A stretch of 39,983 nt of DNA, taken from Microbacterium soli. Its GTDB lineage: Bacteria > Actinomycetota > Actinomycetes > Actinomycetales > Microbacteriaceae. The position numbers and the translations under genes are program-made. The notes beneath the pieces were generated by a model. It was not told the DNA's origin. It saw only the letters and a list, made by a program, of their open reading frames with translations, and made no database searches. Below, piece after piece: positions 1 through 39,983 of this stretch. Position 1 is the stretch's first letter; each line of letters begins with the position of its first letter. The stretch lies in assembly GCF_039539005.1 (NCBI RefSeq), contig NZ_BAABCP010000003.1:1-39983 (forward strand). Direction: 5' to 3'.

Positions 1-127
1 CCTAATAGTACTAATACCGTCACCGGAGGTAGTGAGATGGCCCGCAAGATCAAGACCACCAAGAGCCCCGAGGAGCGTCGCGCCGAGGCCGAAGGGCTGC
101 ACGCCACGATCGCGGAACAGGTCGAGG
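1..127. repeat. Terminal direct repeat (circular contig overlap)
   Basis: Bases 1-127 are repeated without mismatch at 39857-39983. A 127-base overlap is a common assembly k-mer size and the two ends join in the middle of ardC, so I read it as the closure mark of a circular molecule of about 39,856 bp and not as a biological repeat. Confidence 0.9.
3..16 (+). promoter_or_regulatory. Palindromic promoter-operator 1 (ardC)
   Basis: TAATAGTACTAATA, one member of the repeated AATAGTACTATT family. The -10 candidate is TACTAA at 9-14. The -35 would lie across the contig join, about 17 bases upstream, and is weak. ATACCGT follows the box, as in other family members. The gene starts at 37 after a GGAGG ribosome site. 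Confidence 0.65.
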
Positions 128-921
128 AGCTGCGCACCTCGGAAGCCTGGTCGCGGTTCCTCACGTTCGCGCAGGCGTTCCACCGCTACAGCCTGAACAA
201 CCTGCTGCTGATCCTCGCGCAGAAGCCCGAGGCGACCAGCGTCGCCGGTTACCGCACGTGGCAGAAGCTCGGCCGCCAGGTGCGCAAGGGATCGCGCGGC
301 ATCCGCATCTTCGGCGGCCGCGACGTGCGCGAGACGGTCGAGGACGAGCAGAGCGGCGAGGAGAAAGAACAGCGCCGCGTGCGATTCTTCCCCGTGTCCG
401 TGTTCGACATCTCGCAGACCGACCCCATCGACCCCGAGGCGGACGACCCCAGCACCCTCGCGCAGCCGCTCACCGGCAACGACCCCGCAGGCATCTTCGA
501 CGCCGTAGCGGATTACCTCACCGGCAAGGGCTGGACGGTCGAGCGCGAGCCCATCGATGGAGCTGCCAACGGCTACACCGACCCCGAGGCGCGGCGCGTT
601 GTGATCGACGCCGACCTCTCCCCCGCCCAGGCCGCCAAGACCGCCCTGCACGAGGCCGCACACGTCGAGCTGCACGCCGAGGAAGATCACGCCGAGTACG
701 TCGAGCACCGCGGCGTGAAAGAGACCGAAGCCGAGAGCGTCGCCTACATCGTCGCGGGCATCCTCGGACTCGACACCAGCGCCTACAGCGTCGGCTACAT
801 CGCCGGGTGGAGCAAGTGCGAACCCGAGACGATCAAGGCCACCGCCGCAAACGTGCTGCGCGCCGCGCACACCCTGGCCGACGCCATCACCGAGCCCGCC
901 GAGGCAGCCGACGCAGCCTAA
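37..921 (+). CDS. ardC: ArdC-like antirestriction protein with zinc-protease domain
   Basis: A 294-residue protein with the two-part ArdC layout. Residues about 12-135 match the N-terminal DUF1738-type single-strand DNA-binding domain (YSLNNLLLI, the GYRTWQKLGR region, KGSRGI). The C-terminal zincin-like part has HEAAH at 205-209, with a likely third zinc ligand in KETEAES near 232. Known ArdC proteins protect incoming plasmid DNA from host restriction early in conjugation, and this role is inferred here. The ATG at 37 is set by GGAGG eight bases upstream. It is the first gene of the small-gene region, with its own palindromic promoter, and a structured repeat ends 59 bases before its start. 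The family call is firm; the molecular target is not visible. Confidence 0.88.
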   Translation: MARKIKTTKSPEERRAEAEGLHATIAEQVEELRTSEAWSRFLTFAQAFHRYSLNNLLLILAQKPEATSVAGYRTWQKLGRQVRKGSRGIRIFGGRDVRETVEDEQSGEEKEQRRVRFFPVSVFDISQTDPIDPEADDPSTLAQPLTGNDPAGIFDAVADYLTGKGWTVEREPIDGAANGYTDPEARRVVIDADLSPAQAAKTALHEAAHVELHAEEDHAEYVEHRGVKETEAESVAYIVAGILGLDTSAYSVGYIAGWSKCEPETIKATAANVLRAAHTLADAITEPAEAADAA

Positions 922-1751: not shown

Positions 1752-1925
1752 CGTTTTCTTGCCGTGAAGCCTTCGGCAGCATACGGTCGGCCAGCCTCCG
1801 CACAAGCGCTTTCGCGGCATATCCTCGCGTCTTTCGCTGCGCTCGGCCGCTCCGGTATTCCACGGTCGCTTGTGCTCCGGCCGGCTCTCCCTAGCGGCGA
1901 CAAGTCGCCTTCACGGCAAAAAACG
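1752..1925 (+). repeat. Structured repeat element, copy 1
   Basis: A 174-bp non-gene block sharing most of its sequence with 39669-39834. The outer arms are CGTTTTCTTGCCGTGAAG (1752-1769) and CTTCACGGCAA plus AAAACG (1909-1925). An inner stem pairs GCACAAGCG (1800-1808) with CGCTTGTGC (1867-1875). Small hairpins sit at 1769-1777 (GCC-TTC-GGC) and 1896-1909 (GGCGAC-AA-GTCGCC). It ends 21 bases before the NrdH start. The nested pairing suggests a folded RNA or folded single-stranded DNA. Weaker similarity to copy 2 extends upstream to about 1660. Together with it, the 317-base gap 1630-1946 is accounted for. Confidence 0.7.
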
Positions 1926-1946: not shown

Positions 1947-2201
1947 ATGTTGACAGTCACCGTGTACACCACCGGCCCGAGCTGCATCCGCTGCAAGATG
2001 ACCAAGGACGTCATGGGCCGCAAGGGCGTCGAGTTCGTCGAGGTCGACATCCGCGAGAACACCGCCGCACGCGAGTACGTGGTCGAGGAGCTGGGATACA
2101 CCGAGGCACCCGTCGTCGTCGTCGAGGACGGCACCGGCGAAGATCACTGGTCGGGATTCCGGCCCGATCAGATCGACCGCATCGCCGCCGTAAATGCTTG
2201 A
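1947..2201 (+). CDS. nrdH: NrdH-type glutaredoxin-like redoxin
   Basis: An 84-residue thioredoxin-fold protein. The redox pair is CIRC at residues 13-16 (MLTVTVYTTGPSCIRC), and the C-terminal WSGFRPDQID matches the NrdH signature. NrdH normally donates electrons to class Ib ribonucleotide reductase, so a plasmid copy could support dNTP supply during replication or after transfer; that role is inferred. The ATG at 1947 is chosen because GGGAGGA (1933-1939) sits just upstream and the fold starts there. The longer open frame upstream is repeat sequence. No shared palindrome precedes it; instead structured repeat copy 1 does. Confidence 0.85.
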   Translation: MLTVTVYTTGPSCIRCKMTKDVMGRKGVEFVEVDIRENTAAREYVVEELGYTEAPVVVVEDGTGEDHWSGFRPDQIDRIAAVNA

Positions 2202-2660: not shown

Positions 2661-2978
2661 ATGAACGCCACAGTCCAAGACCTCGCAGCCCGCTACTCGG
2701 CACTTCCCGAGAGTATCCGCAGCAAGTGCCCCCGGCCCACCGGGGCCGTCACCCCGGAGAGGGTGCGCGGCTGGCTGATCGAGCTGCGCGACACCTGCCT
2801 CGCGGCCGCCGCAACGGCCACAGACCTCGCGCTCGACACGGCCCAGGCCGGAGACCTCGACGCCGCAACCTCGCTGAAGCACGAGGCGCGCGCGACGCTC
2901 TCATTTGCAGCAGCGATCGGAGACCTCATCGGCTACCCGCCGATCGACGCCGACAACCGATCGGAGGAGAACAACTAA
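2661..2978 (+). CDS. Hypothetical helical protein, 105 aa
   Basis: The ATG at 2661 follows AAAGGAGA and gives a 105-residue protein rich in alanine and predicted helix (LAARYSALPESIRSKC..., then DTCLAAAATATDLALDTAQAGDLDAATSLKHEARATL). The spaced charged and alanine-rich helices resemble a small helical hairpin. No family is recognised. It is transcribed from promoter 5 and followed directly by the ssb promoter. Confidence 0.6.
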   Translation: MNATVQDLAARYSALPESIRSKCPRPTGAVTPERVRGWLIELRDTCLAAAATATDLALDTAQAGDLDAATSLKHEARATLSFAAAIGDLIGYPPIDADNRSEENN

Positions 2979-2984
2979 GACCCC

Positions 2985-3015
2985 TTGCAACCCCATTACC
3001 GCTAACAGTACTATT
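2985..3015 (+). promoter_or_regulatory. Palindromic promoter-operator 6 (ssb)
   Basis: TTGCAA (2985-2990), 18 bases, TACTAT (3009-3014), with AACAGTACTATT at 3004-3015. The upstream flank ATTACCGCTAAC resembles the flank of operator 4. The ssb ATG follows at 3043 after GGAGGAAA. Confidence 0.75.
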
Positions 3016-3042
3016 AGAGTCACCATCCAACAGGAGGAAACC

Positions 3043-3426
3043 ATGAGCTACATCACCCGCACCGGCAACCTGGCCGAGACCCCGACCCTGCGCGAGGGCG
3101 ACAACGGGCCGTACACCTACGCCCGCGTCCTCGTCAGCGACCGGCTGCGCCAGGAGGACGGCAGCTACACCGACGGCCCGACCATCGGCTACGACGTCGC
3201 CGTGAGCGGCAACCAGGCTGTGAACCTCATCGAGGCGGCCGAGCGCAGCGGGAACATCCGCGTGACGTTCTCGGGCCGCTACCGCGTCACCGAGTACAAG
3301 GGCGAGCAGGGCACCCGCATGCAGCACGAGGTGCGCGCCGACGAGGTGAGCGTGAGCCTGCGCGGCCAGAGCGTCACCGTCGAGCGGGCCGCCCGCGCGG
3401 ACGAGCCCGACAGCACGCCGTTCTGA
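3043..3426 (+). CDS. ssb: Single-stranded DNA-binding protein
   Basis: A 127-residue OB-fold protein. It begins MSYITRTGNLAETPTLR, with the typical SSB strand order (YARVLVSDRLRQ, YDVAVSGNQA, GNIRVTFSGRYRV), and ends with a short acidic tail, DEPDSTPF. Chromosomal SSBs end in DDDIPF; the final PF needed for partner binding is kept. It coats single-stranded DNA during plasmid replication or entry. The ATG at 3043 is set by GGAGGAAA. A strong hairpin terminator follows, so it is a single-gene unit driven by promoter 6. Confidence 0.88.
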   Translation: MSYITRTGNLAETPTLREGDNGPYTYARVLVSDRLRQEDGSYTDGPTIGYDVAVSGNQAVNLIEAAERSGNIRVTFSGRYRVTEYKGEQGTRMQHEVRADEVSVSLRGQSVTVERAARADEPDSTPF

Positions 3427-3434
3427 CCGACCCA

Positions 3435-3468
3435 GGGGTGCGGTGCCGATTCGCTGGCACCGCACCCC
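3435..3468 (+). terminator. Hairpin terminator after ssb
   Basis: Perfect 13-base arms GGGGTGCGGTGCC (3435-3447) and GGCACCGCACCCC (3456-3468) with an 8-base loop, nine bases after the ssb stop. There is no T-run, which is usual in high-GC actinobacteria. It abuts promoter 7. Confidence 0.75.
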
Positions 3469-3469
3469 C

Positions 3470-3481
3470 AACAGTACTATT
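3470..3481 (+). promoter_or_regulatory. Palindromic promoter-operator 7 (parAB)
   Basis: AACAGTACTATT, with -10 TACTAT (3475-3480). The -35 would fall inside the ssb terminator hairpin and is poor. A further ACTATT follows at 3485-3490. This operator controls parAB and could also be part of the partition site. Confidence 0.65.
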
Positions 3482-3503
3482 AGCACTATTGGAGGTATTA
3501 CCC

Positions 3504-4301
3504 GTGACCGCTCGAATCATCGCCCTCTGCAACCAGAAGGGCGGCGTCGGTAAGTCGACGACGACGTTCCACCTCGCGCGCGCGGCCGTGCTGCGCGGGC
3601 AGCGCGTGCTCGTCGTCGACAACGACCCGCAAGGCAACCTGACCTCAGTCGCGGCCGCCGAGACGGTCGGAGACGACCAGGCAGGGCTTGCCGACGCCCT
3701 CAGCTCACGCGCGCCCGAGAGCATCCGAGACGTGATCGTGCGCGGCGTATGGCCCGGCCTCGACGTCGTGCCGACGTCGGGCGTGATCCTCGGTTCCGTG
3801 CGCGACGAGCTCGTGGTCGCCGGAGCGGGCCGAGAAGGTCGCCTGCGCGCGGCGCTGGCCGCCGTGGCGGCCGACTACGACCTGATCCTGATCGACTGCG
3901 CACCGAGCCTCGACCAGCTCACCATCAACGGCCTCACCGCCGCCGATGCCGTGACGATCGTCACCCACTCCAAGCTGTTCAGCGCCAACGGGCTCGCGCA
4001 GCTCCTCGACACGATCGACAACGTGCGCCAGTACTACAACCCCGCGCTGCGCGTGGCAGGCGTCATCGTCAACCAGCACGAGGAGCAGACCGTCAGCGGC
4101 CGCACCTGGCTCGACGAGCTGCACGCGGCCGCCGGAGCCCGCGAGTTGCGCGTGCTCACGCCACCGATCCCCAAGCGCGTCGTCATCAGCGACGCCACCG
4201 AGGCCGCTCGCGGCCTCGACGAGTGGGGGAGCGCCGAGGCGACCGCGCTCGGCGCGATCTACACCGACCACCTGACCGCCATCGAAGGAGTCACGTCATG
4301 A
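3504..4301 (+). CDS. parA: ParA-family partition ATPase
   Basis: A 265-residue Walker-type ATPase. The deviant Walker A box KGGVGKST is at residues 12-19 and the Walker B region YDLILIDCAPSLD near 120-132. It has no N-terminal DNA-binding extension, so it resembles the short type Ib ParA proteins. It would move plasmid copies using ATP with its ParB partner. The GTG at 3504 is chosen because GGAGG lies eight bases upstream and Walker A then sits at the usual distance. It overlaps parB by four bases (ATGA), which indicates coupled translation. Confidence 0.9.
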   Translation: MTARIIALCNQKGGVGKSTTTFHLARAAVLRGQRVLVVDNDPQGNLTSVAAAETVGDDQAGLADALSSRAPESIRDVIVRGVWPGLDVVPTSGVILGSVRDELVVAGAGREGRLRAALAAVAADYDLILIDCAPSLDQLTINGLTAADAVTIVTHSKLFSANGLAQLLDTIDNVRQYYNPALRVAGVIVNQHEEQTVSGRTWLDELHAAAGARELRVLTPPIPKRVVISDATEAARGLDEWGSAEATALGAIYTDHLTAIEGVTS

Positions 4302-4696
4302 GCACCCGTCCCGCCCCGCGTAAGTCCAGCCTCGCCGGATCGAGCCCGGTCGCCCCGCCGGCACAGCCGGCACAGCCGGCGACGCCCGAACCCGACGTCG
4401 TGCCGGCGGCCGCGCAGCCCGCGGCACCGAAGCCGGCACGCGCCACCAGCTCAACGAGCGACAAGACGAAGTACCGGCACAAGGTGAGCTTCTACCAGCA
4501 CCCCGACGACACGGCGCGCGTGCGCGGTGCGATCCTGCACACCCAGGTCTCGGAGGGAGCGCGCACGCTCAGCCAGTTCGTCAACGACGCCGTGCTGGCC
4601 GAGGTCGAGCGGCTGGAAGCCAAGTACAACAACGGCCAGCCGTTCCCGGCTGTGGGAGCCCGCGAGCTGCCACAGGGCCGACCGATGGGGGAGTGA
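4298..4696 (+). CDS. parB: Ribbon-helix-helix ParB-like partner
   Basis: A 132-residue protein. Residues 1-57 are a flexible Pro/Ala linker; residues about 58-110 (KYRHKVSFYQHPDDTARVRGAI...LSQFVNDAVLAEVERLE) have the strand-helix-helix pattern of ribbon-helix-helix DNA-binding proteins. Type Ib partition systems pair a short ParA with such a protein, which binds repeats near the operon and also represses it. The repeated AATAGTACTATT sites around parAB are therefore natural candidate targets; this is inference. The start is fixed by the ATGA overlap with parA. It lacks the HTH-ParB domain of chromosomal ParB. Confidence 0.78.
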   Translation: MSTRPAPRKSSLAGSSPVAPPAQPAQPATPEPDVVPAAAQPAAPKPARATSSTSDKTKYRHKVSFYQHPDDTARVRGAILHTQVSEGARTLSQFVNDAVLAEVERLEAKYNNGQPFPAVGARELPQGRPMGE

Positions 4697-4701
4697 GCAT
4701 C

Positions 4702-4880
4702 ATGGCCAACCTCGCACGAGACATGCGCCTCGCGTGGCGACTGCTCACAGACTGGGAGCGGTGGGCTCTCATCGGCGCACCGCTGGCCCTTATCAGCGCC
4801 TACACGTTGTATCAGCTCTCCGATGCACTAGGGGTCGTCTGGTTCGTGCTGATCGGCTTGTTCGTCGGGATCGTCGGCGG
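4702..4880 (+). pseudogene. Small membrane protein truncated by IS6100
   Basis: The ATG at 4702, after GGGGGAG, opens a gene for a protein with two membrane segments (ALIGAPLALISAYTLYQLS and VVWFVLIGLFVGIVGG). After 60 native codons the frame runs into the IS6100 end at 4881 and stops at 4995 in foreign sequence. The 3' part is absent from the window, so the gene is broken. It followed parB closely, like small membrane genes often found after plasmid partition loci. No family is recognised. Confidence 0.7.
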
Positions 4881-4941
4881 GGCTCTGTTGCAAAGATTGG
4901 CGGCAGTCAGAGGTAGGCTGTCGCTCTGCGCCGATCAGGCG
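4881..4941. mobile_element. IS6100 end remnant, 61 bp
   Basis: GGCTCTGTTGCAAAG and the following bases match the left end of the complete IS6100 at 7503-7563 base for base over 61 positions, then diverge into the integron 3' conserved segment. It marks the left edge of the resistance block and disrupts the membrane gene at 4702. The rest of this IS copy has been deleted. Confidence 0.9.
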
Positions 4942-4973
4942 ACCCGAACGTTCGGAGGCTCCTCGCTGTCCAT
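4942..4973 (-). pseudogene. orf5 remnant of the integron 3' conserved segment
   Basis: On the minus strand an ATG at 4973 reads MDSEEPPNVRV, which I recognise as the start of orf5, the GNAT-like gene that follows sul1 in class 1 integrons. Only about 11 codons remain before the IS6100 fragment. The junction has AGGCG common to both sides (4937-4941). Confidence 0.75.
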
Positions 4974-5100
4974 TCGCTCCCCTGGCGCGGTATGAACCGC
5001 CGCCTCATAGTGCAGTTTGATCCTGACGAGCCCAGCATGTCTGCGCCCACCTTCGCGGAACCTGACCAGGGTCCGCTAGCGGGCGGCCGGAAGGTGAATG

Positions 5101-5940
5101 CTAGGCATGATCTAACCCTCGGTCTCTGGCGTCGCGACTGCGAAATTTCGCGAGGGTTTCCGAGAAGGTGATTGCGCTTCGCAGATCTCCAGGCGCGTGG
5201 GTGCGGACGTAGTCAGCGCCATTGCCGATCGCGTGAAGTTCCGCCGCAAGGCTCGCTGGACCCAGATCCTTTACAGGAAGGCCAACGGTGGCGCCCAAGA
5301 AGGATTTCCGCGACACCGAGACCAATAGCGGAAGCCCCAACGCCGACTTCAGCTTTTGAAGGTTCGACAGCACGTGCAGCGATGTTTCCGGTGCGGGGCT
5401 CAAGAAAAATCCCATCCCCGGATCGAGGATGAGCCGGTCGGCAGCGACCCCGCTCCGTCGCAAGGCGGAAACCCGCGCCTCGAAGAACCGCACAATCTCG
5501 TCGAGCGCGTCTTCGGGTCGAAGGTGACCGGTGCGGGTGGCGATGCCATCCCGCTGCGCTGAGTGCATAACCACCAGCCTGCAGTCCGCCTCAGCAATAT
5601 CGGGATAGAGCGCAGGGTCAGGAAATCCTTGGATATCGTTCAGGTAGCCCACGCCGCGCTTGAGCGCATAGCGCTGGGTTTCCGGTTGGAAGCTGTCGAT
5701 TGAAACACGGTGCATCTGATCGGACAGGGCGTCTAAGAGCGGCGCAATACGTCTGATCTCATCGGCCGGCGATACAGGCCTCGCGTCCGGATGGCTGGCG
5801 GCCGGTCCGACATCCACGACGTCTGATCCGACTCGCAGCATTTCGATCGCCGCGGTGACAGCGCCGGCGGGGTCTAGCCGCCGGCTCTCATCGAAGAAGG
5901 AGTCCTCGGTGAGATTCAGAATGCCGAACACCGTCACCAT
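5101..5940 (-). CDS. sul1: Sulfonamide-resistant dihydropteroate synthase
   Basis: A 279-residue DHPS that I recognise as Sul1: it starts [15 protein letters not shown] and carries [13 protein letters not shown] and VSRKSFLGA. It makes dihydropteroate from the pterin and p-aminobenzoate substrates but discriminates against sulfonamides, so it confers resistance. The start at 5940 gives the known length; the frame is open further upstream because it overlaps qacE-delta-1. It belongs to the 3' conserved segment and is expressed with the cassette from the integron promoter or a local one. It appears intact. Confidence 0.97.
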
Positions 5941-6281
5941 GGCGTCGGCCTCCGCAGCGACTTCCACGATGGGGATCGGGCGAGCAAAAAGGCAGCAATT
6001 ATGAGCCCCATACCTACAAAGCCCCACGCATCAAGCTTTTGCCCATGAAGCAACCAGGCAATGGCTGTAATTATGACGACGCCGAGTCCCGACCAGACTG
6101 CATAAGCAACACCGACAGGGATGGATTTCAGAACCAGAGAAAGAAAATAAAATGCGATGCCATAACCGATTATGACAACGGCGGAAGGGGCAAGCTTAGT
6201 AAAGCCCTCGCTAGATTTTAATGCGGATGTTGCGATTACTTCGCCAACTATTGCGATAACAAGAAAAAGCCAGCCTTTCAT
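5934..6281 (-). CDS. qacEdelta1: Truncated quaternary ammonium efflux protein
   Basis: A 115-residue SMR-family transporter ([22 protein letters not shown]...). The first three membrane segments are normal, but the C-terminus is replaced by [15 protein letters not shown], the known fusion that defines qacE-delta-1. It gives low or no biocide tolerance in known cases. The last codons overlap sul1 by seven bases. It is a standard marker of the class 1 integron 3' conserved segment. Confidence 0.97.
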
Positions 6282-6382
6282 GATATATCTCCCAATTTGT
6301 GTAGGGCTTATTATGCACGCTTAAAAATAATAAAAGCAGACTTGACCTGATAGTTTGGCTGTGAGCAATTATGTGCTTAGTG

Positions 6383-6443
6383 CATCTAACGCTTGAGTTA
6401 AGCCGCGCCGCGAAGCGGCGTCGGCTTGAACGAATTGTTAGAC
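6383..6443 (-). other. attC site of the aadA1 cassette
   Basis: About 60 bp bounded by TCTAAC and GTTAGAC. It has an imperfect inverted structure around GCCGCGCCGCGAAGCGGCG, typical of the aadA attC (59-base element). The integrase recognises it as folded single-stranded DNA. The cassette/3' segment junction falls between 6389 and 6390. Confidence 0.9.
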
Positions 6444-7245
6444 ATTATTTGCCGACTACCTTGGTGATCTCGCCTTTCACGTAGTGAACAAATTCTTCCA
6501 ACTGATCTGCGCGGGAGGCCAAGCGATCTTCTTCTTGTCCAAGATAAGCCTGTCTAGCTTCAAGTATGACGGGCTGATACTGGGCCGGCAGGCGCTCCAT
6601 TGCCCAGTCGGCAGCGACATCCTTCGGCGCGATTTTGCCGGTTACTGCGCTGTACCAAATGCGGGACAACGTAAGCACTACATTTCGCTCATCGCCAGCC
6701 CAGTCGGGCGGCGAGTTCCATAGCGTTAAGGTTTCATTTAGCGCCTCAAATAGATCCTGTTCAGGAACCGGATCAAAGAGTTCCTCCGCCGCTGGACCTA
6801 CCAAGGCAACGCTATGTTCTCTTGCTTTTGTCAGCAAGATAGCCAGATCAATGTCGATCGTGGCTGGCTCGAAGATACCTGCAAGAATGTCATTGCGCTG
6901 CCATTCTCCAAATTGCAGTTCGCGCTTAGCTGGATAACGCCACGGAATGATGTCGTCGTGCACAACAATGGTGACTTCTACAGCGCGGAGAATCTCGCTC
7001 TCTCCAGGGGAAGCCGAAGTTTCCAAAAGATCGTTGATCAAAGCTCGCCGCGTTGTTTCATCAAGCCTTACGGTCACCGTAACCAGCAAATCAATATCAC
7101 TGTGTGGCTTCAGGCCGCCATCCACTGCGGAGCCGTACAAATGTACGGCCAGCAACGTCGGTTCGAGATGGCGCTCGATGACGCCAACTACCTCTGATAG
7201 TTGAGTCGATACTTCGGCGATCACCGCTTCCCTCATGATGTTTAA
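6390..7245 (-). mobile_element. aadA1 gene cassette, 856 bp
   Basis: From the attI1 junction (G followed by TTAAAC on the minus strand, at 7245) to the attC cleavage point (6390) is 856 bp, the known size of the aadA1 cassette. It is the only cassette present. Its base composition is clearly lower in GC than the plasmid backbone. Confidence 0.9.
6445..7236 (-). CDS. aadA1: Aminoglycoside (3'')(9)-nucleotidyltransferase AadA1
   Basis: A 263-residue adenylyltransferase starting MREAVIAEVSTQLSEVVGV, recognised as AadA1 and not AadA2. The nucleotidyltransferase core GSAVDGGLKPHSDIDLLV holds the metal-binding Asp pair. It adenylylates streptomycin and spectinomycin. The ATG at 7236 is nine bases inside the cassette edge; upstream in-frame codons belong to attI1. 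Expression depends on the Pc promoter at 7468-7496. No damage is seen. Confidence 0.96.
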   Translation of the reverse strand: MREAVIAEVSTQLSEVVGVIERHLEPTLLAVHLYGSAVDGGLKPHSDIDLLVTVTVRLDETTRRALINDLLETSASPGESEILRAVEVTIVVHDDIIPWRYPAKRELQFGEWQRNDILAGIFEPATIDIDLAILLTKAREHSVALVGPAAEELFDPVPEQDLFEALNETLTLWNSPPDWAGDERNVVLTLSRIWYSAVTGKIAPKDVAADWAMERLPAQYQPVILEARQAYLGQEEDRLASRADQLEEFVHYVKGEITKVVGK

Positions 7246-7310
7246 CTTTGTTTTAGGGCGACTGCCCTGCTGCGTAACATCGTTGCTGCTCCATAACATC
7301 AAACATCGAC
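7246..7310 (-). other. attI1 integration site
   Basis: The segment next to the cassette (from CAAAG at the junction outward to about 7310) is the class 1 integron attI1 site recognised by IntI1. The exact outer border is from known attI1 length and not directly visible. Confidence 0.85.
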
Positions 7311-7380
7311 CCACGGCGTAACGCGCTTGCTGCTTGGATGCCCGAGGCATAGACTGTACAAAAAACAGTCATAACAAGCC

Positions 7381-7502
7381 ATGAAAACCGCCACTGCGCC
7401 GTTACCACCGCTGCGTTCGGTCAAGGTTCTGGACCAGTTGCGTGAGCGCATACGCTACTTGCATTACAGCTTACGAACCGAACAGGCTTATGTCCACTGG
7501 GT
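7381..7502 (+). pseudogene. intI1: intI1 5' remnant, cut by IS6100
   Basis: The ATG at 7381 reads [20 protein letters not shown] and on to EQAYVHW, the start of the class 1 integrase IntI1. The normal protein is 337 residues; here about 40 remain before IS6100 begins at 7503. The integrase is therefore inactive, and the cassette can no longer be excised or exchanged by a plasmid-borne integrase. Confidence 0.95.
7468..7496 (-). promoter_or_regulatory. Integron cassette promoter Pc, weak type
   Basis: On the minus strand TGGACA (complement of 7491-7496), 17 bases, TAAGCT (complement of 7468-7473). This is the PcW variant. It lies inside the intI1 remnant and points toward aadA1, so truncating the integrase did not remove cassette expression. 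The second promoter P2 lacks its activating GGG insertion. Confidence 0.9.
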
Positions 7503-8382
7503 GGCTCTGTTGCAAAGATTGGCGGCAGTCAGAGGTAGGCTGTCGCTCTGCGCCGATCAGGCGGCTGCTGCGAAATGGTGGTTGAGCATGCCCATGGCCT
7601 CCGTCAGCGCCGAGGGCCCAATGCCAAAAGCTCTCTCCACAAGGCGCACCTCGCCCCTGATGCCGGGCTGCAGGCACCAGGGGCGAGCCTGTCCTTTGCG
7701 CAGGGCTCGCATGACTTCGAATCCCTTGATCGTGGCATAGGCCGTGGGGATCGATTTGAAACCGCGCACCGGCTTGATCAGTATCTTGAGCTTTCCGTGA
7801 TCGGCCTCGATCACGTTATTGAGATACTTCACCTGCCGGTGGGCCGTCTCCCGGTCCAGCTTTCCTTCGCGCTTCAATTCGGTGATCGCTGCACCATAGC
7901 TCGGCGCTTTGTCGGTATTGAGCGTGGCAGGCTTTTCCCAGTGCTTCAGGCCTCGCAGGGCCTTGCCCAGGAACCGCTTCGCTGCCTTGGCGCTGCGGGT
8001 CGGCGACAGGTAGAAATCGATCGTGTCGCCCCGCTTGTCGACTGCCCGGTACAGGTAGGTCCACTTGCCCCGCACCTTGACGTAGGTTTCATCCAGGCGC
8101 CAGCTCGGATCAAAGCCACGCCGCCAGAACCAGCGCAGCCGCTTCTCCATCTCCGGGGCGTAGCACTGGACCCAGCGATAGATCGTCGTATGGTCGACCG
8201 AAATGCCGCGTTCCGCCAGCATTTCCTCAAGGTCGCGATAGCTGATCGGATAGCGACAATACCAGCGCACCGCCCACAGGATCACATCACCCTGGAAATG
8301 GCGCCACTTGAAATCCGTCATCGTTCCGTCCGTCCAATCTCCGCCAAGCATGCTCAAGCTTCACGATTTTTGCAACAGAGCG
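7503..8382 (-). mobile_element. IS6100: Complete IS6100
   Basis: The span is 880 bp, the standard IS6100 length. Left end GGCTCTGTTGCAAAG at 7503; right end TTTGCAACAGAGC then G at 8382, one base off a perfect terminal repeat. It is an IS6-family element that moves by replicative cointegrate formation. The left side cuts intI1 and the right side abuts the erm unit. The flanks show no 8-base target duplication, which fits later rearrangement. Confidence 0.93.
7557..8321 (-). CDS. tnpA: IS6100 transposase
   Basis: A 254-residue IS6-family DDE transposase starting [20 protein letters not shown]. Catalytic residues are visible in [18 protein letters not shown] and [10 protein letters not shown]. 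The frame is open 12 codons further upstream, but the known start is the ATG at 8321. It is intact, so it could drive further cointegrates and deletions around the resistance block. Confidence 0.95.
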
Positions 8383-21420: not shown

Positions 21421-21557
21421 GCCTCCATCCTACGAAGAAGTGCATTTCGGCGTCGACGTTCATCGACGCACAGAAGAACCGTCGCGGCGTGGCCGCGATC
21501 ACTCCCGGTTGTCACCGTGAGTGATCCTGAAAGGTGCCCCAGACGGAGCAAGCTATA

Positions 21558-21605
21558 GACTTAGCACGGCTAAGTCGGCTTGATCCTCGACACGGGGTCA
21601 AGGAT
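21558..21605 (+). other. Candidate oriT upstream of mobC-mobA
   Basis: Two adjacent inverted repeats: GACTTAGC-ACG-GCTAAGTC (21558-21576, perfect) and ATCCTCGAC-ACGGG-GTCAAGGAT (21583-21605, one mismatch). They lie about 75-120 bases before mobC in a 258-base gene-free region, the usual place and form of an origin of transfer. The nick site is not identified. The first repeat could instead be a mob repressor operator. Confidence 0.5.
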
Positions 21606-21678
21606 GCGGCACACTAGAAGTGTGATCCCCGCACGGGGCGGGGTCGCTGCGCTGGGCCAGGAAGGGCAGGTGATTCTA

Positions 21679-22074
21679 ATGAGCGACGAGGCTCCCGAGG
21701 ATCGCCGCCTCGCACGCAAGCGGCGCGCGAACGTCGCGGGCGGCCGCCATCACCGTCACGAGGTGAAGGTGTCGCCGGAAGAAGAGGGCGCGTTGCTGCT
21801 GCGCGCGAAGGCGCAGCGCGTGACGATCCCGCGTCTGCTCGTCGAGTCGGCGCTGTCGGCAGCGGGGGAGACGCCAACCGAACGCCGTCAGGCGATGGCC
21901 GAGCTGTTCGGTCTGCACCGGCTGCTCGCGGCCATCTCGAACAACGTCAACCAGATCGCCAAGGCCACGAACGCGACCGGCGAGCTACAGGCTGAGACGG
22001 TGGCGACGCTGGCCAAGGTGCGCGAGGTTGCCGAGCGGATCGACGAGACGATCGACGGGCTGAGCCTGCCATGA
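21679..22074 (+). CDS. mobC: MobC-family mobilization protein
   Basis: A 131-residue protein. N-terminal KRRANVAGGRHHRHEVKVSPEEEGALLLRAKA resembles a ribbon-helix-helix region; the C-terminal part has NNVNQIAKATNATGEL, the MobC signature. MobC proteins bind oriT and help the relaxase open the strands. The ATG at 21679 gives the expected start; the open frame extends 33 codons upstream, with a GTG at 21670 possible. It overlaps the relaxase start by four bases. Confidence 0.85.
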   Translation: MSDEAPEDRRLARKRRANVAGGRHHRHEVKVSPEEEGALLLRAKAQRVTIPRLLVESALSAAGETPTERRQAMAELFGLHRLLAAISNNVNQIAKATNATGELQAETVATLAKVREVAERIDETIDGLSLP

Positions 22075-23795
22075 TGCCGAACGTTGTTCGCGGCGATCGC
22101 ATGGCTGGCCTGATGACCTACCTCACCGGGCCGGGGCGCGCGAACGAGCACACCGAACCGCACCTCGTCGCAGGCGACGCAGCGCTGCTTGCGTGGCACG
22201 ATGACGCCGAGCTGGGACGCGACGCGGCGCTTTCGATCGCGCGGCACCTCGACCGCCCGCGCACTGCGTACGACGTCGACGTGAACGGCGGGCACGTCTG
22301 GCACTGCTCACTATCGCTGCGCGCCGACGAGGGCATGCTGACCGACGAGAAGTGGGGACAGATCGCCAACGACTTCATCACCGCGATGGAGTTCGACGAC
22401 GCCGAGGGCACGAAGGCACCGTGCCGCTGGGTTGCCGTCCGACACGGTGTGTCGAAGAACGGCAACGACCACATCCATATCGCTGTGAACCTCGTGCGCG
22501 AGGACGGCACCAAGGCGTCGATTCACAACGACTTCCACCGGGCACAGAAGGCCGCGCGCGCGCTCGAAGTGAAGTACGGCTTGGAGCAGTTGGAGTCGGC
22601 ACAGGCAGAGCGATCGACGCGCGGCTACCACCCCGCCGAGCGCGAGGCTCAGGCACGCGCCCGAGCACGCGCGAAGTACGAGCGCACCCGTCCGAAGCTC
22701 GGCCCGGATGCACCCACTTGGGAGCGGCTGACCGGCCCCGACCGGCAGGCCCGGATCACCGCCGAGCTGCGCACGGACGAGCCGCGCTATGCGCTCGCCC
22801 GGACGGTTCGCGCCAGCGCCGCAGCCAGCGAGTCCGAGTCCGAGTTCGTGCGCAGGATGCGCCGCTCGGGACTGCTCGTGCGACCGCGCTACGCGGACGG
22901 CCGCACCGACGTCATCACCGGCTACTCGGTCGCAGCTCGACCCGAAGCCGGCGAGCGACCCATCTGGTACGGCGGGGGGCACCTCGGCCGCGACCTCACC
23001 CTGCCCCGGCTGCGCGCGGGGTGGCCCGACACCCCAACCGACGCGACCGAAGCGGCAGCCGAGTGGAACGCAGCCAAGCGCGGCCGCCGCGTCGTGGCAC
23101 CCGGCCGGGAGAACACGACACCCGACCCCGAGTTGTGGGAACGGTACTCGCGCGAGGTCAGCGAGCTGCGCGAGAAGCTGCGCGATGTTCCCCTCGACGA
23201 CCGGGACACGTGGAGCACCCTCGCACGTCAGACCGCCGGAGCTTTCGCCGCCTGGTCGAACGCCGTCGAGGATGCGCCCGGAGACCTCGCCGCGGCATCC
23301 GATGCGCTCGCCCGATCCGCGCAGACGTTCCGCCGCCCGGTGCAGCCGCAGAAGGCCGGCATGGTTGCCATGTCCGGCGCTGCGATGCTGCTGGCCAGCG
23401 CGGCCAAGGGCGGCCAGGGGCGCGCCGCCCAGCTCATCATGCTGCGCCAGCTCGTGCGGCTCTCACAGGCCGTTTACGACGCTGCGAAGGCGGCCGGGGA
23501 GAAGCGGCAGGCTGACCTCATCCTGAGCGACGTGAAGGCGCGGATGGATCGGCTGCGCCATGACCTCGCCCCCACCAGTCAGACCCCGGTGGCCGCGGCG
23601 GCCGGCGCGCAGCAGGGCACGGCCACGGCGACGCTCGACCCGGAGACGCGCGCGATGCTCGACCGGATGAACGCCAGCCAGGGCAAGCCCGCGACCGAGG
23701 CGACATCGCCCGTACCGAACAAGATCGATCCCGACGAGCGGGCGCGGCCACGACAGACCACACGACCGGGCGCAGATCGCGGCCCGGAGCGATAG
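22071..23795 (+). CDS. mobA: Relaxase (mobilization nuclease)
   Basis: A 574-residue relaxase. The N-terminal segment GLMTYLTGPGR carries the likely catalytic Tyr at residue 17. The metal-binding three-His type motif is HGVSKNGNDHIHIAVN near 125-140. Long charged regions follow, without a helicase domain. It would cut oriT, stay linked to the 5' end and lead the strand through the conjugation channel. The motif order fits the MOBP/relaxase PF03432 group; the exact MOB class needs comparison. It starts ATG ATG at 22071 and overlaps mobC. It is followed after 15 bases by a coiled-coil gene. Confidence 0.88.
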   Translation: MMPNVVRGDRMAGLMTYLTGPGRANEHTEPHLVAGDAALLAWHDDAELGRDAALSIARHLDRPRTAYDVDVNGGHVWHCSLSLRADEGMLTDEKWGQIANDFITAMEFDDAEGTKAPCRWVAVRHGVSKNGNDHIHIAVNLVREDGTKASIHNDFHRAQKAARALEVKYGLEQLESAQAERSTRGYHPAEREAQARARARAKYERTRPKLGPDAPTWERLTGPDRQARITAELRTDEPRYALARTVRASAAASESESEFVRRMRRSGLLVRPRYADGRTDVITGYSVAARPEAGERPIWYGGGHLGRDLTLPRLRAGWPDTPTDATEAAAEWNAAKRGRRVVAPGRENTTPDPELWERYSREVSELREKLRDVPLDDRDTWSTLARQTAGAFAAWSNAVEDAPGDLAAASDALARSAQTFRRPVQPQKAGMVAMSGAAMLLASAAKGGQGRAAQLIMLRQLVRLSQAVYDAAKAAGEKRQADLILSDVKARMDRLRHDLAPTSQTPVAAAAGAQQGTATATLDPETRAMLDRMNASQGKPATEATSPVPNKIDPDERARPRQTTRPGADRGPER

Positions 23796-37250: not shown

Positions 37251-37372
37251 GGAAGCTAAGGGCCTGATCTGTCGAAGTTGGCAGCTAGTCAGATTGGCCG
37301 GGGTGAAGAACCTGGTTGGCGCCAGGAGCTTCGCTGTACCTACCAGGGTCACCAGGAGGTGAGTTCATCATA
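37251..37372 (+). promoter_or_regulatory. Structured leader of the replication gene
   Basis: About 120 bases with several short inverted repeats: GGAAGCT near 37250 with AGCTTC (37328-37333), CCTGG-TTGGCG-CCAGG (37311-37326) and CACC-AGGA-GGTG (37350-37361). The last one encloses a strong ribosome site AGGAGG (37354-37359) that is followed by no normal in-frame start codon. This suggests control of Rep translation by RNA folding. Confidence 0.45.
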
Positions 37373-39472
37373 GCAGGATCACCCGTTTCCGTAACGGATA
37401 CTCCCCGCGGCGTTTCTCCGTGGGCGTTCACGCGCGCGTTGAGCCCGCGCCCGAGCGTGCGCGTCGCTACCGTCGACGACCGTGGCGACGTGATGAACCT
37501 CTACACCGGCCGCGCGCGCGTCGATGGGACGGAGCCCGCCCGGCCGTGGGCGGTCTACCTCGCCGGCACCGATGCCCGGTTCCGGCTGCTGGCGTTCGAC
37601 CTCGACGCGAAGGCCGAGGGAGCGAACGCCGCGGCGGAGCGCGACGCCGCAACGATCGCCGGCGTCCTCACGGATGCCGGCATCGAGCACGTCGTGTGCC
37701 AGTCCGGGCCGTCCGGCGGCCGCCACGTATGGGCGGCGCTGGCCGAGAGCGTCGACGCCGAGACGATCGCCACCCTGGCGCGCCTGACGCGCCACTTGTG
37801 CCCCTCGCTTGACCTCTCGCAGCTCACGAACCCCGCTACGGGTTGCGTGCGGCCGCCAGGAGCACCGCACCGTGCCGGCGGTGCCTCCACGGTGCTCACC
37901 GGCACGCTGGACGCGCTCACGAACCCCACGACGACCGCCGCTCAGGTGCGTCAGCTCGTCGAGCGCCTGGCGCAGCTCGTCGACCTCGACGAGCCCGCCG
38001 TAGCTGCCGACCCGCACACGCCGCTGCCTCTCGACGAGCACGGTCACCTGTACCTGCCCGGCCGCCGCCGCGAGCTGCCGGCATCGAGCGCGGCCGCGCT
38101 GCGCGAGGACGCTGCCAGCGGCGACGCCTCGGCCGTGCTCTGGCGCGTCCTGATCGGAGCCGCGGCCGCCAGGTGGCGGCACGCCGACATCGCAGCTCTC
38201 GTTGAGACCTCACCCGGTCTCGAACACGTGCGCAGCTCGCGCGATCGCTCAGGACGCCGCACACGGCCCATCAGCGGCCCCAACAGCGCCGCCGCGGTGC
38301 TGCGCCGCCAGTGGCGCAAGGCCGTGCGCTACGTCGCCACCAGCGACCGCCAGATTGGGGACGATCCCACGTTCGATGCCCGCGCCGACGCGATCGCCGC
38401 TCACGTGCGCGACGTGCAGACCCGCGCCGACGCCAGCGTAGGCCGCTGGACGCGCGGAGGCGGCCCAGCCGACCGCCGGGTGCTCGACGTTCTCTGCCTC
38501 CTCGCCCTACAAGCCCTCAGCGGCCCTGTGGAGGCCGATACCCGCCGCCTGGCCCTACTAGCCGGGATCGGCCGCGAAACCGCGCGCACGGCCCTCCTCC
38601 GGCTCGCCGCTGACGGGTGGATCGCCCAAGCCGGCGCGGCCGATGGCCCGCACGGAGCCCGCTGGACGATCGACCCACAGGGCGTTCTCCACAGGGAACC
38701 GAGTACAAGTCGGTCACAAGCGGACCCGCGCCCCGGAGGGGCCGGGGCCGCCGAACGCACCACGCTCATTACGATCCTGACCGCGCGAACCTTGGACGCT
38801 GCGCACGACGTGTTCACCCTCTCCCCCGGCATCGGACTGCACGCAGGGAACCTCTACGCGAGAACCACCGAGGATGCTCAGGACGTCGACGAGCTAGCCC
38901 GCGCCACTGGATCAGACCCCGCCCGCACGCTGCGCTCCCTCGACCGGCTCGTGTCGGCGGGTCTGCTCTTGCAGCGTGGCACCCGTTGGGCTCGGCCGAG
39001 CCAGGATCGACGCCGAGCCGCCGCTGAAAGCCTCGGCGTCGACGGCCGGCTACAGCGTCGAGCCGCCGCCTACGCCGTCGAGCGCGAGCTGTGGGCGTGG
39101 TGGCAGGCCGAACAGACATGGATGCAAGCACCACGGCGACCCGGTGCCGGCCGCCGACCCGGCCGAGGCCAGCTCACGTTGCTACCCGAGTTCGGCACGA
39201 GCGCCTACGGTGCGCACCCACGTCGAGCCGACGGCCGAGCCGACTACCGTGCAGCTCGCGCCGAGGTCGAGCAGGAGCGCGGCGGCCGCGCGATCGCGCC
39301 CCGCCGCTCCCCCGCACCCGCCGTCGTCGCTGTCGAGCCGCCCAGCGACGCCGAGCGCATCATCACCGACATTCTCGGAGCCCGCCTGATCGCCGTCGAG
39401 TCCTACGCCCCAGCACAACCGGACGGGCGCAGCGACGGCGAAGTGCCCGAGCTGGTCGAAGCGATCGCCTGA
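37316..39472 (+). CDS. rep: Replication initiator with primase (AEP) domain
   Basis: Up to 718 residues. The N-terminal part is an archaeo-eukaryotic-type primase: metal-binding FDLDAK near 94-99, the QSGPSGGRHVW motif near 128-138 and RPPGAPHR near 181-188. The middle is helical. Two winged-helix segments follow (RLALLAGIGRETARTALLRLAADGW and VDELARATGSDPARTLRSLDRLVSAG) for origin binding. Primase-type Rep proteins of this kind start theta replication of actinobacterial plasmids. The start is uncertain: TTG 37316, an unusual ATC/ATA near 37367-37370 behind AGGAGG, or ATG 37493. No other replication gene is present. Confidence 0.85.
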   Translation: MAPGASLYLPGSPGGEFIIAGSPVSVTDTPRGVSPWAFTRALSPRPSVRVATVDDRGDVMNLYTGRARVDGTEPARPWAVYLAGTDARFRLLAFDLDAKAEGANAAAERDAATIAGVLTDAGIEHVVCQSGPSGGRHVWAALAESVDAETIATLARLTRHLCPSLDLSQLTNPATGCVRPPGAPHRAGGASTVLTGTLDALTNPTTTAAQVRQLVERLAQLVDLDEPAVAADPHTPLPLDEHGHLYLPGRRRELPASSAAALREDAASGDASAVLWRVLIGAAAARWRHADIAALVETSPGLEHVRSSRDRSGRRTRPISGPNSAAAVLRRQWRKAVRYVATSDRQIGDDPTFDARADAIAAHVRDVQTRADASVGRWTRGGGPADRRVLDVLCLLALQALSGPVEADTRRLALLAGIGRETARTALLRLAADGWIAQAGAADGPHGARWTIDPQGVLHREPSTSRSQADPRPGGAGAAERTTLITILTARTLDAAHDVFTLSPGIGLHAGNLYARTTEDAQDVDELARATGSDPARTLRSLDRLVSAGLLLQRGTRWARPSQDRRRAAAESLGVDGRLQRRAAAYAVERELWAWWQAEQTWMQAPRRPGAGRRPGRGQLTLLPEFGTSAYGAHPRRADGRADYRAARAEVEQERGGRAIAPRRSPAPAVVAVEPPSDAERIITDILGARLIAVESYAPAQPDGRSDGEVPELVEAIA

Positions 39473-39668: not shown

Positions 39669-39834
39669 CGTTTTCTAGCCGTGAAGCCTTCGGCAGCATA
39701 CGGTCGGCCGGCCTCCGCACAAGCGCTTTCGCGGCATATCCTCCCTCGCTCCGCTCAGTCCGGTATTCCACGGTCGCTTGTGCTCCATCCGGCTCTCCCT
39801 AGCGGCGACAAGTCGCCTTCACGGCAAGAAAACG
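39669..39834 (+). repeat. Structured repeat element, copy 2
   Basis: A 166-bp block matching 1752-1925. Outer arms CGTTTTCTAGCCGTGAAG (39669-39686) and CTTCACGGCAAGAAAACG (39817-39834) pair at 17 of 18 positions; the inner stem GCACAAGCG (39717-39725) / CGCTTGTGC (39775-39783) is unchanged, and both small hairpins are kept. The middle is 9 bases shorter than in copy 1. It ends 22 bases before the ardC operator. Confidence 0.7.
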
Positions 39835-39856: not shown

Positions 39857-39983
39857 CCTAATAGTACTAATACCGTCACCGGAGGTAGTGAGATGGCCCG
39901 CAAGATCAAGACCACCAAGAGCCCCGAGGAGCGTCGCGCCGAGGCCGAAGGGCTGCACGCCACGATCGCGGAACAGGTCGAGG
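39857..39983. repeat. Second copy of the terminal overlap, with the ardC start
   Basis: Identical to 1-127. It contains the ardC promoter palindrome, the ribosome site and the first 30 codons of ardC (ATG at 39893). It should not be counted as a second gene. Confidence 0.9.

What the first reader, a model, noticed from the sequence alone, without database searches (positions are those of the whole stretch)
1752..1925. Twin 170-bp structured repeats upstream of two early genes
The copies at 1752-1925 and 39669-39834 share nested pairing: outer 17-18 base arms, an invariant 9-base inner stem and two small hairpins. The change C-GAGAAAAC to AAAAAAC in one arm and the 9-base middle deletion leave the structure intact. 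Both copies end shortly before a gene start (NrdH, ardC). Neither is an IS or known plasmid site that I recognise. It may be a regulatory RNA, a single-strand origin or a folded promoter.
Basis: seen in the sequence. Interest (0 to 1): 0.75.

Follow-up and report, generated by a model that had tools for sequence, protein, structure and literature searches.

The report
Likely folded single-strand plasmid promoters
Two near-identical 170-base folded DNA elements on an actinobacterial plasmid look like promoters that work only while the plasmid enters a new cell as a single strand, and the same folded tip sits on plasmids of very different bacteria, including the classic F plasmid.

Summary
The window is a circular plasmid (127-base terminal overlap), so the two copies lie 1.94 kb apart, flanking ardC. 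They belong to a widespread element: a nearly invariant apical hairpin on a strongly covarying stem, found on actinobacterial, Pseudomonas, Burkholderia and Klebsiella plasmids and on F and ColIb-P9 before their leading-region methylase gene. On 47 diverse copies 93.5% of structure cells pair (shuffled 76.9%; slid 28-45%), and all nine lower-stem pairs show compensatory changes. G.T/A.C asymmetry points to the minus strand, opposite to the gene-coding strand, as the folded one; by oriT geometry this is the transferred strand. Its 3' arm carries TTGTGC-N16-TATGCT; the right arm shows no -10 enrichment. Best reading: an Frpo-like single-stranded-DNA promoter that fires toward oriT in the recipient and gives early, transient expression of ArdC, NrdH and SSB. 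F's Frpo2 shows no significant sequence match, and my searches found no paper on such promoters in Actinobacteria. Against it: the tip also occurs in an IS66-like insertion sequence and, inverted, beside oriT; the -10 evidence is modest once relatedness is removed (p=0.03; left versus right arm p=0.15). No transcription was measured.

The parts
1752..1925 (-). Element copy 1 (folded strand is minus); ends 21 nt before the NrdH/glutaredoxin ATG
   Evidence: cap matched by CM R1 at 1796-1879, 76.9 bits, E 2.9e-20 (the copy is in the model's alignment)
39669..39834 (-). Element copy 2; ends 58 nt before the ardC ATG at 39893 (= 37)
   Evidence: cap matched by CM R1 at 39713-39787, 85.3 bits, E 7.4e-23 (also in the model's alignment)
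1800..1805 (-). -35-like TTGTGC on the minus-strand 3' arm, inside the covarying stem 1800-1808/1867-1875
1778..1783 (-). -10-like TATGCT, 16 nt from the -35; its pairing with the other arm is imperfect
39717..39722 (-). -35-like TTGTGC of copy 2
39695..39700 (-). -10-like TATGCT of copy 2
1810..1866 (-). Conserved apical hairpin (cap) of copy 1: ACCGTGGAATACCG ... GAGGATATGCCGCGAAA
39727..39774 (-). Conserved apical hairpin (cap) of copy 2
1896..1909 (+). GGCGACAAGTCGCC, expected near the 5' end of the predicted transcript
   Evidence: sequence; the transcript start is my estimate
37..921 (+). ardC (ArdcN + M78 peptidase domains), downstream of copy 2
1947..2201 (+). NrdH-like glutaredoxin, downstream of copy 1
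3043..3426 (+). ssb (start chosen by me inside ORF 2905-3426)
3438..4301 (+). parA-like ATPase
21545..21576 (-). Proposed oriT core: GGAGCAAGCTA block beside an 8-bp inverted repeat, upstream of mobC
21679..22074 (+). mobC/NikA-like accessory protein (start chosen by me inside ORF 21580-22074)
22071..23795 (+). Relaxase (PF03432)

Best explanation
Each element is a promoter that exists only while the plasmid is single-stranded. The transferred (minus) strand enters the recipient and folds; the lower stem makes a duplex whose 3' arm (apex to base) reads TTGTGC-N16-TATGCT. Host RNA polymerase binds there, uses the 5' arm and the strand beyond the stem as template, and transcribes toward oriT, making mRNA for ArdC, NrdH, SSB and neighbours before the second strand exists. 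Once duplex, the right arm offers no -10 in the gene direction, so expression should stop. The RNA may also prime second-strand synthesis, as reported for Frpo. Shown here: a covarying fold, strand bias, promoter-like hexamers on one arm in the actinobacterial group, gene adjacency, co-orientation with the relaxase gene on complete or large plasmid stretches. Inferred: identity of the transferred strand in the window, use by RNA polymerase, transient expression.
For: (1) Covariation: 47 sequences, 19 pairs, 93.5% of 893 cells paired vs 76.9% shuffled (0/500) and 28.1-45.0% slid; 139 double-change cells vs 44.3 (0/500); score 0.397 vs 0.106 (0/500); 9 of 9 lower-stem pairs compensatory. On 89 non-redundant copies: 745 of 979 Watson-Crick; shuffled partners 362 on average, maximum 405 in 200. 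(2) Strand: plus-strand A.C 54 vs G.T 23; invariant U.G pair on the minus strand, 47 of 47. (3) In my class 'leading-type and other' the -10 score on the minus-strand 3' arm is 1.44 vs -2.92 shuffled (p=1e-7), right arm p=0.21; 30 of 62 vs 2 of 62 score >=3. (4) Genes found by tblastn just downstream on the plus strand: glutaredoxin in 22 loci, methyltransferase 12, SSB 11, ArdC 10, ParB 10 (within 9 kb; many 57-120 nt from the core). (5) On the 8 actinobacterial plasmids whose fetched stretch has an annotated or detected relaxase, all full and partial copies found are co-oriented with it. (6) An oriT-like block identical in 10 of 10 aligned regions has its inverted repeat on the side that makes minus the transferred strand. 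(7) The core lies in the leading regions of F and ColIb-P9 before the methylase gene; PMC7736820 says such genes are oriented for transcription from the transferred strand (passage).
Against: The -10 signal rests mainly on one related actinobacterial cluster (29 of 62): over 21 clusters left arm vs shuffle p=0.032, left vs right p=0.15, 5 of 21 score >=3. Enterobacterial copies (L001, L003, L130) show no good -10 at 15-18 nt. One covariation measure is not beyond shuffles: 10 pairs with double changes vs 8.6, reached by 62 of 500. The Lachnospiraceae-type class has no -10 enrichment (p=0.42) and 29 loci have the cap in or beside an IS66-like transposase gene. In all 19 contig loci with a relaxase hit within reach, relaxase lies on the opposite strand and the element is inverted relative to the inferred transferred strand; 4 of 4 tested copies of one such group still have the -10. 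The oriT block is absent from 3 of the 8 co-oriented plasmids (L007, L008, L142). Computed DNA folds of the two copies do not form the comparative cap pairing. F Frpo2 has no significant similarity (best E 0.11). No expression data.
Confidence: 0.68

Rival explanations
1. A single-strand origin: RNA polymerase makes only a primer for second-strand synthesis and the position near genes is incidental.
For: The same folded-promoter anatomy would serve; Frpo RNA is reported to prime too (PMC7736820, passage). Some loci gave no leading-type gene hit.
Against: Up to five strict cores in one plasmid, each followed by a plus-strand gene; one origin would do.
Confidence: 0.13
2. A duplex-DNA or supercoil-dependent (cruciform) promoter that normally fires leftward, e.g. 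for mobC in the inverted group.
For: In duplex DNA the same -35/-10 points left; next to mobC in 18 contig loci that is the mob operon direction.
Against: In the window the genes left of both copies are on the plus strand, and a duplex promoter does not need nine compensatory pairs.
Confidence: 0.11
3. A structured RNA: either the 5' leader of the downstream mRNA or an antisense RNA from the minus strand.
For: Stable folds on either strand; in the IS66-like elements the minus strand is the transposase mRNA strand.
Against: Mismatch asymmetry and the invariant pair disfavour the plus-strand RNA. A minus-strand RNA would be antisense to the leading genes in the window. No Rfam match at gathering scores.
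Confidence: 0.08

Closest known systems
Frpo1/Frpo2 (ssi) of plasmid F and ssi2/ssi3 of ColIb-P9
   Same: Imperfect hairpins on the transferred strand in the leading region, upstream of ssb and other early genes, with -35/-10 boxes in the stem (PMC9849209, PMC11541004, PMC7736820: passages only).
   Different: No significant sequence similarity of our 89-copy set to F Frpo2 (Frpo1 is 89% identical to Frpo2 over 478 aligned bases, and was not searched separately). About 170 nt; nearly invariant cap ACCGTGGAATACCG...GAGGATATGCCGCGAAAG; found in Actinobacteria. F and ColIb-P9 carry our element as a separate site before the methylase gene.
EGeRS1 of Bacillus pLS20-family plasmids
   Same: Repeated structured sequences before ardC and other establishment operons in a Gram-positive plasmid (PMC8708921: abstract, passages, first of three parts of Results).
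   Different: 420-750 bp; no core match in the 50.8 of 65.8 kb of pLS20 examined; its authors exclude an ssDNA promoter because the transferred strand there is the non-template strand.
ssoA-type single-strand origins
   Same: Recalled: folded ssDNA bound by RNA polymerase to make a primer.
   Different: Recalled RSB/CS-6 motifs were not tested; here several copies per plasmid can sit before genes.

Membership tests
Frpo/ssi single-stranded promoter | Lies in the leading region upstream of early genes | tested here: met
   F and ColIb-P9 positions; window inferred from oriT position and gene content
Frpo/ssi single-stranded promoter | Transferred strand is the template of the downstream genes | tested here: inconclusive
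   Supported by oriT geometry (block in 5 of 8 plasmids) and 8 of 8 co-orientation; nick not mapped; inverted in 19 of 19 contig loci with a nearby relaxase
Frpo/ssi single-stranded promoter | -35 and -10 reconstituted in the hairpin stem | tested here: met
   Window TTGTGC-N16-TATGCT; supported in the actinobacterial group, weak elsewhere
Frpo/ssi single-stranded promoter | Sequence homology to known Frpo | tested here: not met
   F Frpo2 against the 89-copy set, best E 0.11
Frpo/ssi single-stranded promoter | Transcription by RNA polymerase from ssDNA, transient in recipients | not testable with these tools
   needs experiments
EGeRS1 | Sequence similarity to pLS20 EGeRS1 | tested here: not met
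   No nhmmer hit of the core profile at E<=10 in 50.8 kb of pLS20; 30,001-44,999 not fetched
Insertion sequence part | Element lies inside a transposase-bearing IS | tested here: not met
   29 loci have IS66-type transposase hits beside the cap; in the window ardC, a small ORF and NrdH flank it

The most novel reading that the evidence does not exclude
A second, cross-phylum family of single-stranded-DNA promoters, without detectable sequence similarity to Frpo, whose nearly invariant cap is a portable module recognised by a host factor conserved from Actinobacteria to Enterobacteria (RNA polymerase or a partner). The cap can be swapped for a different hairpin on the same promoter base (seen in Microbacterium, Clavibacter and Cryobacterium plasmids) and also occurs in an IS66-like element. 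F itself would carry a third site, of this family, before its methylase gene.
Probability: 0.4. Interest if true: 0.9.

Novelty: new variant of a known kind. Interest (0 to 1): 0.78.

Why it matters
Single-stranded promoters are known from enterobacterial plasmids. The two surveys I saw passages of searched by BLAST (E 1e-6) with known or putative Frpo sequences, one adding a consensus-and-structure search in four islands; neither text mentions Actinobacteria. If the reading is right, it explains how actinobacterial plasmids could switch on anti-restriction genes on entry, gives a covariance model to look for such sites in unstudied plasmids, and poses a sharp question: what reads a cap conserved across phyla?

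Tried and rejected
Rfam at gathering and permissive thresholds: nothing relevant. Phage collection: one weak hit (E 0.2), not followed. Frpo2 homology: not significant. pLS20 EGeRS1 as the same thing: no core found. P-type nick consensus YATCCTGY (recalled; YATCYTGY also allowed) upstream of mobC: not found in 12 regions, so the proposed oriT rests on conservation and on a recalled rule that the inverted repeat lies 5' of the nick; L007 and L008 were left out of the 10-sequence alignment and lack the exact block. A pure leading-region story was rejected as complete because of the IS66-like and mobC-proximal contexts. Plus-strand leader RNA rejected on mismatch asymmetry. Pfam tallies of downstream ORFs chosen by script as the longest ORF are noisy in GC-rich DNA. 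The last literature search was too broad to be informative: it needed two of six terms and the 10 of 1,811 papers listed matched only on taxon names.

Full report
What is there. Bases 1-127 of the window equal 39857-39983: the window is a closed circular plasmid of 39,856 bp. The two copies, 1752-1925 and 39669-39834, are therefore 1.94 kb apart in the same orientation and flank ardC and one small ORF. As single-stranded DNA the minus strands fold 4.2 and 4.9 standard deviations below dinucleotide shuffles. Copy 1 ends 21 nt before an NrdH-like glutaredoxin gene, copy 2 ends 58 nt before ardC; ssb and parA follow. No Rfam family matches it at gathering scores.

How widespread. blastn at E<=1e-3 found 201 of 72,556 plasmid records: Burkholderia 104, Pseudomonas 27, Curtobacterium 19, Clavibacter 13 and others. 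At E<=10 the 5000-record limit was reached (Escherichia 2119, Klebsiella 1964 of the 5000); the rows shown from these match either a 26-base stretch or query bases 52-117, at E 0.04-6. nhmmer seeded with only the two window copies reached all seven actinobacterial plasmids fetched by then (five copies on L009, four on L008), and Burkholderia, Pseudomonas, Klebsiella, an F-like plasmid and, at E 2e-4, plasmid F. The 80 titles shown include many Actinobacteria and Lachnospiraceae, and Marivita, Epibacterium, Burkholderia, Erwinia, Vibrio, Alicyclobacillus, Paenibacillus and one Bacteroidia MAG; 3 viral contigs matched too. Misbinned or contaminant contigs are possible for single MAGs. With a covariance model, 38 of 299 sampled genomes of the window's family match at E<=1e-4 (25 of 85 genera), but only the window's own among 396 sampled across the phylum; both searches used filters that lose weak matches. 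That suits a mobile-element feature.

The fold. In 89 non-redundant copies the stem below the cap is Watson-Crick in 745 of 979 cells; slid registers give 251-308 and shuffled partners 362 on average (maximum 405 in 200). On 47 diverse copies the 19-pair structure is 93.5% paired vs 76.9% shuffled, with covariation score 0.397 vs 0.106 (0/500 each) and 139 double-change cells vs 44; all nine lower-stem pairs have compensatory changes. The count of pairs with any double change, 10 vs 8.6, is not beyond shuffles (62/500). In the cap eight of ten pairs never vary, so its pairing is tested only by pair 25-58, with five compensatory cells. Computed DNA folds do not show that cap pairing: copy 1 pairs otherwise and the copy 2 centroid leaves the cap open. 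Cap conservation among pattern hits is partly by selection; nhmmer, CM and blastn hits were not required to match exactly.

Which strand. Non-Watson-Crick cells read on the plus strand are A.C 54 and G.T 23. By class, over nine pairs: 29:14 ('leading-type and other', n=62, p=0.03), 7:0 (Lachnospiraceae type, n=19, p=0.016), 4:0 and 2:0 (two relaxase-adjacent groups, n=4 each). A.C on plus is G.T on minus, so the minus strand is the one kept foldable. The invariant pair that is U.G in the minus-strand model would be A.C on plus. This argues against a leader RNA of the downstream genes.

Promoter signature. Reading the minus-strand 3' arm from apex to base, many copies show TTGNNN in the covarying stem and TANNNT about 16 nt on: the window has TTGTGC-N16-TATGCT; others TAGAAT, TACGAT, TATCAT. 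In the 62 'leading-type and other' copies the -10 score is 1.44 vs -2.92 for shuffles (p=1e-7); the right arm is not enriched (p=0.21); 30 of 62 vs 2 of 62 score at least 3. Relatedness inflates these p values: over 21 clusters the left arm is p=0.032, the right 0.59, left vs right 0.15, and 5 of 21 vs 0 of 21 score at least 3. The Lachnospiraceae class shows no enrichment (p=0.42); of the two relaxase-adjacent groups one has 0 of 4 and the other 4 of 4. Enterobacterial copies (L001, L003, L130) have no good -10 at that spacing. So the promoter claim is best supported for the actinobacterial group and only suggestive elsewhere.

Transfer strand. Upstream of mobC (ATG taken as 21679) a block GGAGCAAGCTA next to an inverted repeat (21545-21576) is conserved; GAGCAAGCTA is identical in the 10 regions aligned. 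It is present in 5 of the 8 plasmids counted below and absent, as an exact match, from L007, L008 and L142. If the inverted repeat lies 5' of the nick, the usual geometry (recalled), the nicked strand is minus and transfer runs leftward through parA, ssb, NrdH and ardC. That makes the minus strand both the transferred strand and the template of these genes. On the 8 actinobacterial plasmids with a relaxase gene in the fetched stretch (window, L006, L007, L008, L139, L141, L142, L143) all full and partial copies that blastn finds are co-oriented with it (annotations). L009-L012, L140 and L144 had none annotated there; L010 has copies on both strands. In F and ColIb-P9 the element lies in the leading region with the methylase gene 105 nt after the core; that their genes there read from the transferred strand is from PMC7736820 (passage) and recall.

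Contexts that complicate. By tblastn on the fetched loci: an IS66-type transposase on the minus strand to the right in 29 loci; in the pairs compared, the shared segment is about 1.9 kb and in L065 holds one 487-aa transposase gene, so an insertion sequence carries the cap. A relaxase lies on the minus strand to the left in 19 loci, all those contig loci with a relaxase hit; five also have a glutaredoxin gene on the right (L083, L090, L098, L124, L126). There the element is inverted relative to the inferred transferred strand and its -35/-10 may simply serve mobC in duplex DNA. Of 21 loci with more than one strict core, 16 have all on one strand and 5 (L010, L042, L047, L098, L124) are mixed. 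So the cap has a life beyond leading-region promoters.

A modular design. Elements in Microbacterium (L140, L144), Clavibacter (L142) and Cryobacterium (L141) share the base of the window element (outer stem, -35, -10 region, small hairpins) but carry a different apical hairpin; the covariance model finds no cap there. A blastn with one of them found 77 plasmid records, which include type-A elements through the shared base. A promoter base with exchangeable caps fits the anatomy.

What is known. Frpo folds on ssDNA into a stem with -10/-35 boxes and is needed for early leading-gene expression in F (PMC9849209, passages). Samuel and colleagues report 13,089 Frpo-homologous promoters by BLAST at 1e-6 and, in a Streptococcus and an insect-metagenome island, no significant similarity, followed by a more sensitive candidate search (PMC11541004, passages). 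pLS20 has structured repeats before ardC of unknown mechanism (PMC8708921, abstract, passages and first part of Results). PMC7736820 mentions an Frpo (ssi) upstream of ecoGIXM; whether that is the present element I could not tell. My searches (listings only, some broad) showed no paper on such promoters in Actinobacteria; supplements and most subscription papers were out of reach, so absence in print is not proven.

Verdict. Observation confirmed; best explained as a single-stranded-DNA promoter that works like Frpo. By sequence it is not a member of the classical Frpo family. Confidence 0.68 for the mechanism in the window; I lowered it slightly on review because the oriT block is missing from 3 of the 8 plasmids.

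Noticed in passing
window 1-20, 923-979, 1205-1233, 2213-2232, 2616-2635, 3001-3020, 3467-3486: Palindromic repeat CTAATAGTACTATTAG (8 matches to AATAGTACTATT with up to 2 changes) between leading-region genes; also on L006 (7), L139 (6), L141 (9), L143 (5), L012 (7), L008 (2), L009 (1), but 0 on L007, L010, L142, L144. Possibly an operator or an mRNA element of the leading genes.
   Followed up: partly
L002 5996-6075 (plasmid F) and L136 23708-23787 (ColIb-P9): A site of this family upstream of the leading-region DNA methylase, separate from the Frpo1/Frpo2 regions.
   Followed up: partly
L140 4152-4373, L144 15229-15450, L142 1156-1376, L141 11559-11799 and 13591-13845: Same promoter base with a different apical hairpin (GAGAGAATTTCGG...CCGAAA in L140, L144, L142; close variant in L141) (the 11559 copy seen only as a blastn match).
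   Followed up: partly
L065 about 3793-5721 and relatives: IS66-like insertion sequence with a single 487-aa transposase gene and the cap between its stop codon and the left end of the shared segment.
   Followed up: partly
L009 13476-18121: Five strict cores in one Glutamicibacter plasmid, each before a plus-strand gene, including DprA, ArdC and NrdH; also a partial reverse match at 37425-37515.
   Followed up: no
window 5101-8357: Sulfonamide-resistance-like, SMR-exporter-like and aminoglycoside-adenylyltransferase-like ORFs with an AAC_AAD leader/attI match at 7214-7292 and an IS6-type transposase ORF (gene names are my reading of the translations).
   Followed up: no
window 37316-39472: 718-aa protein with weak, below-cut-off archaeo-eukaryotic primase similarity just before copy 2.
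   Followed up: no
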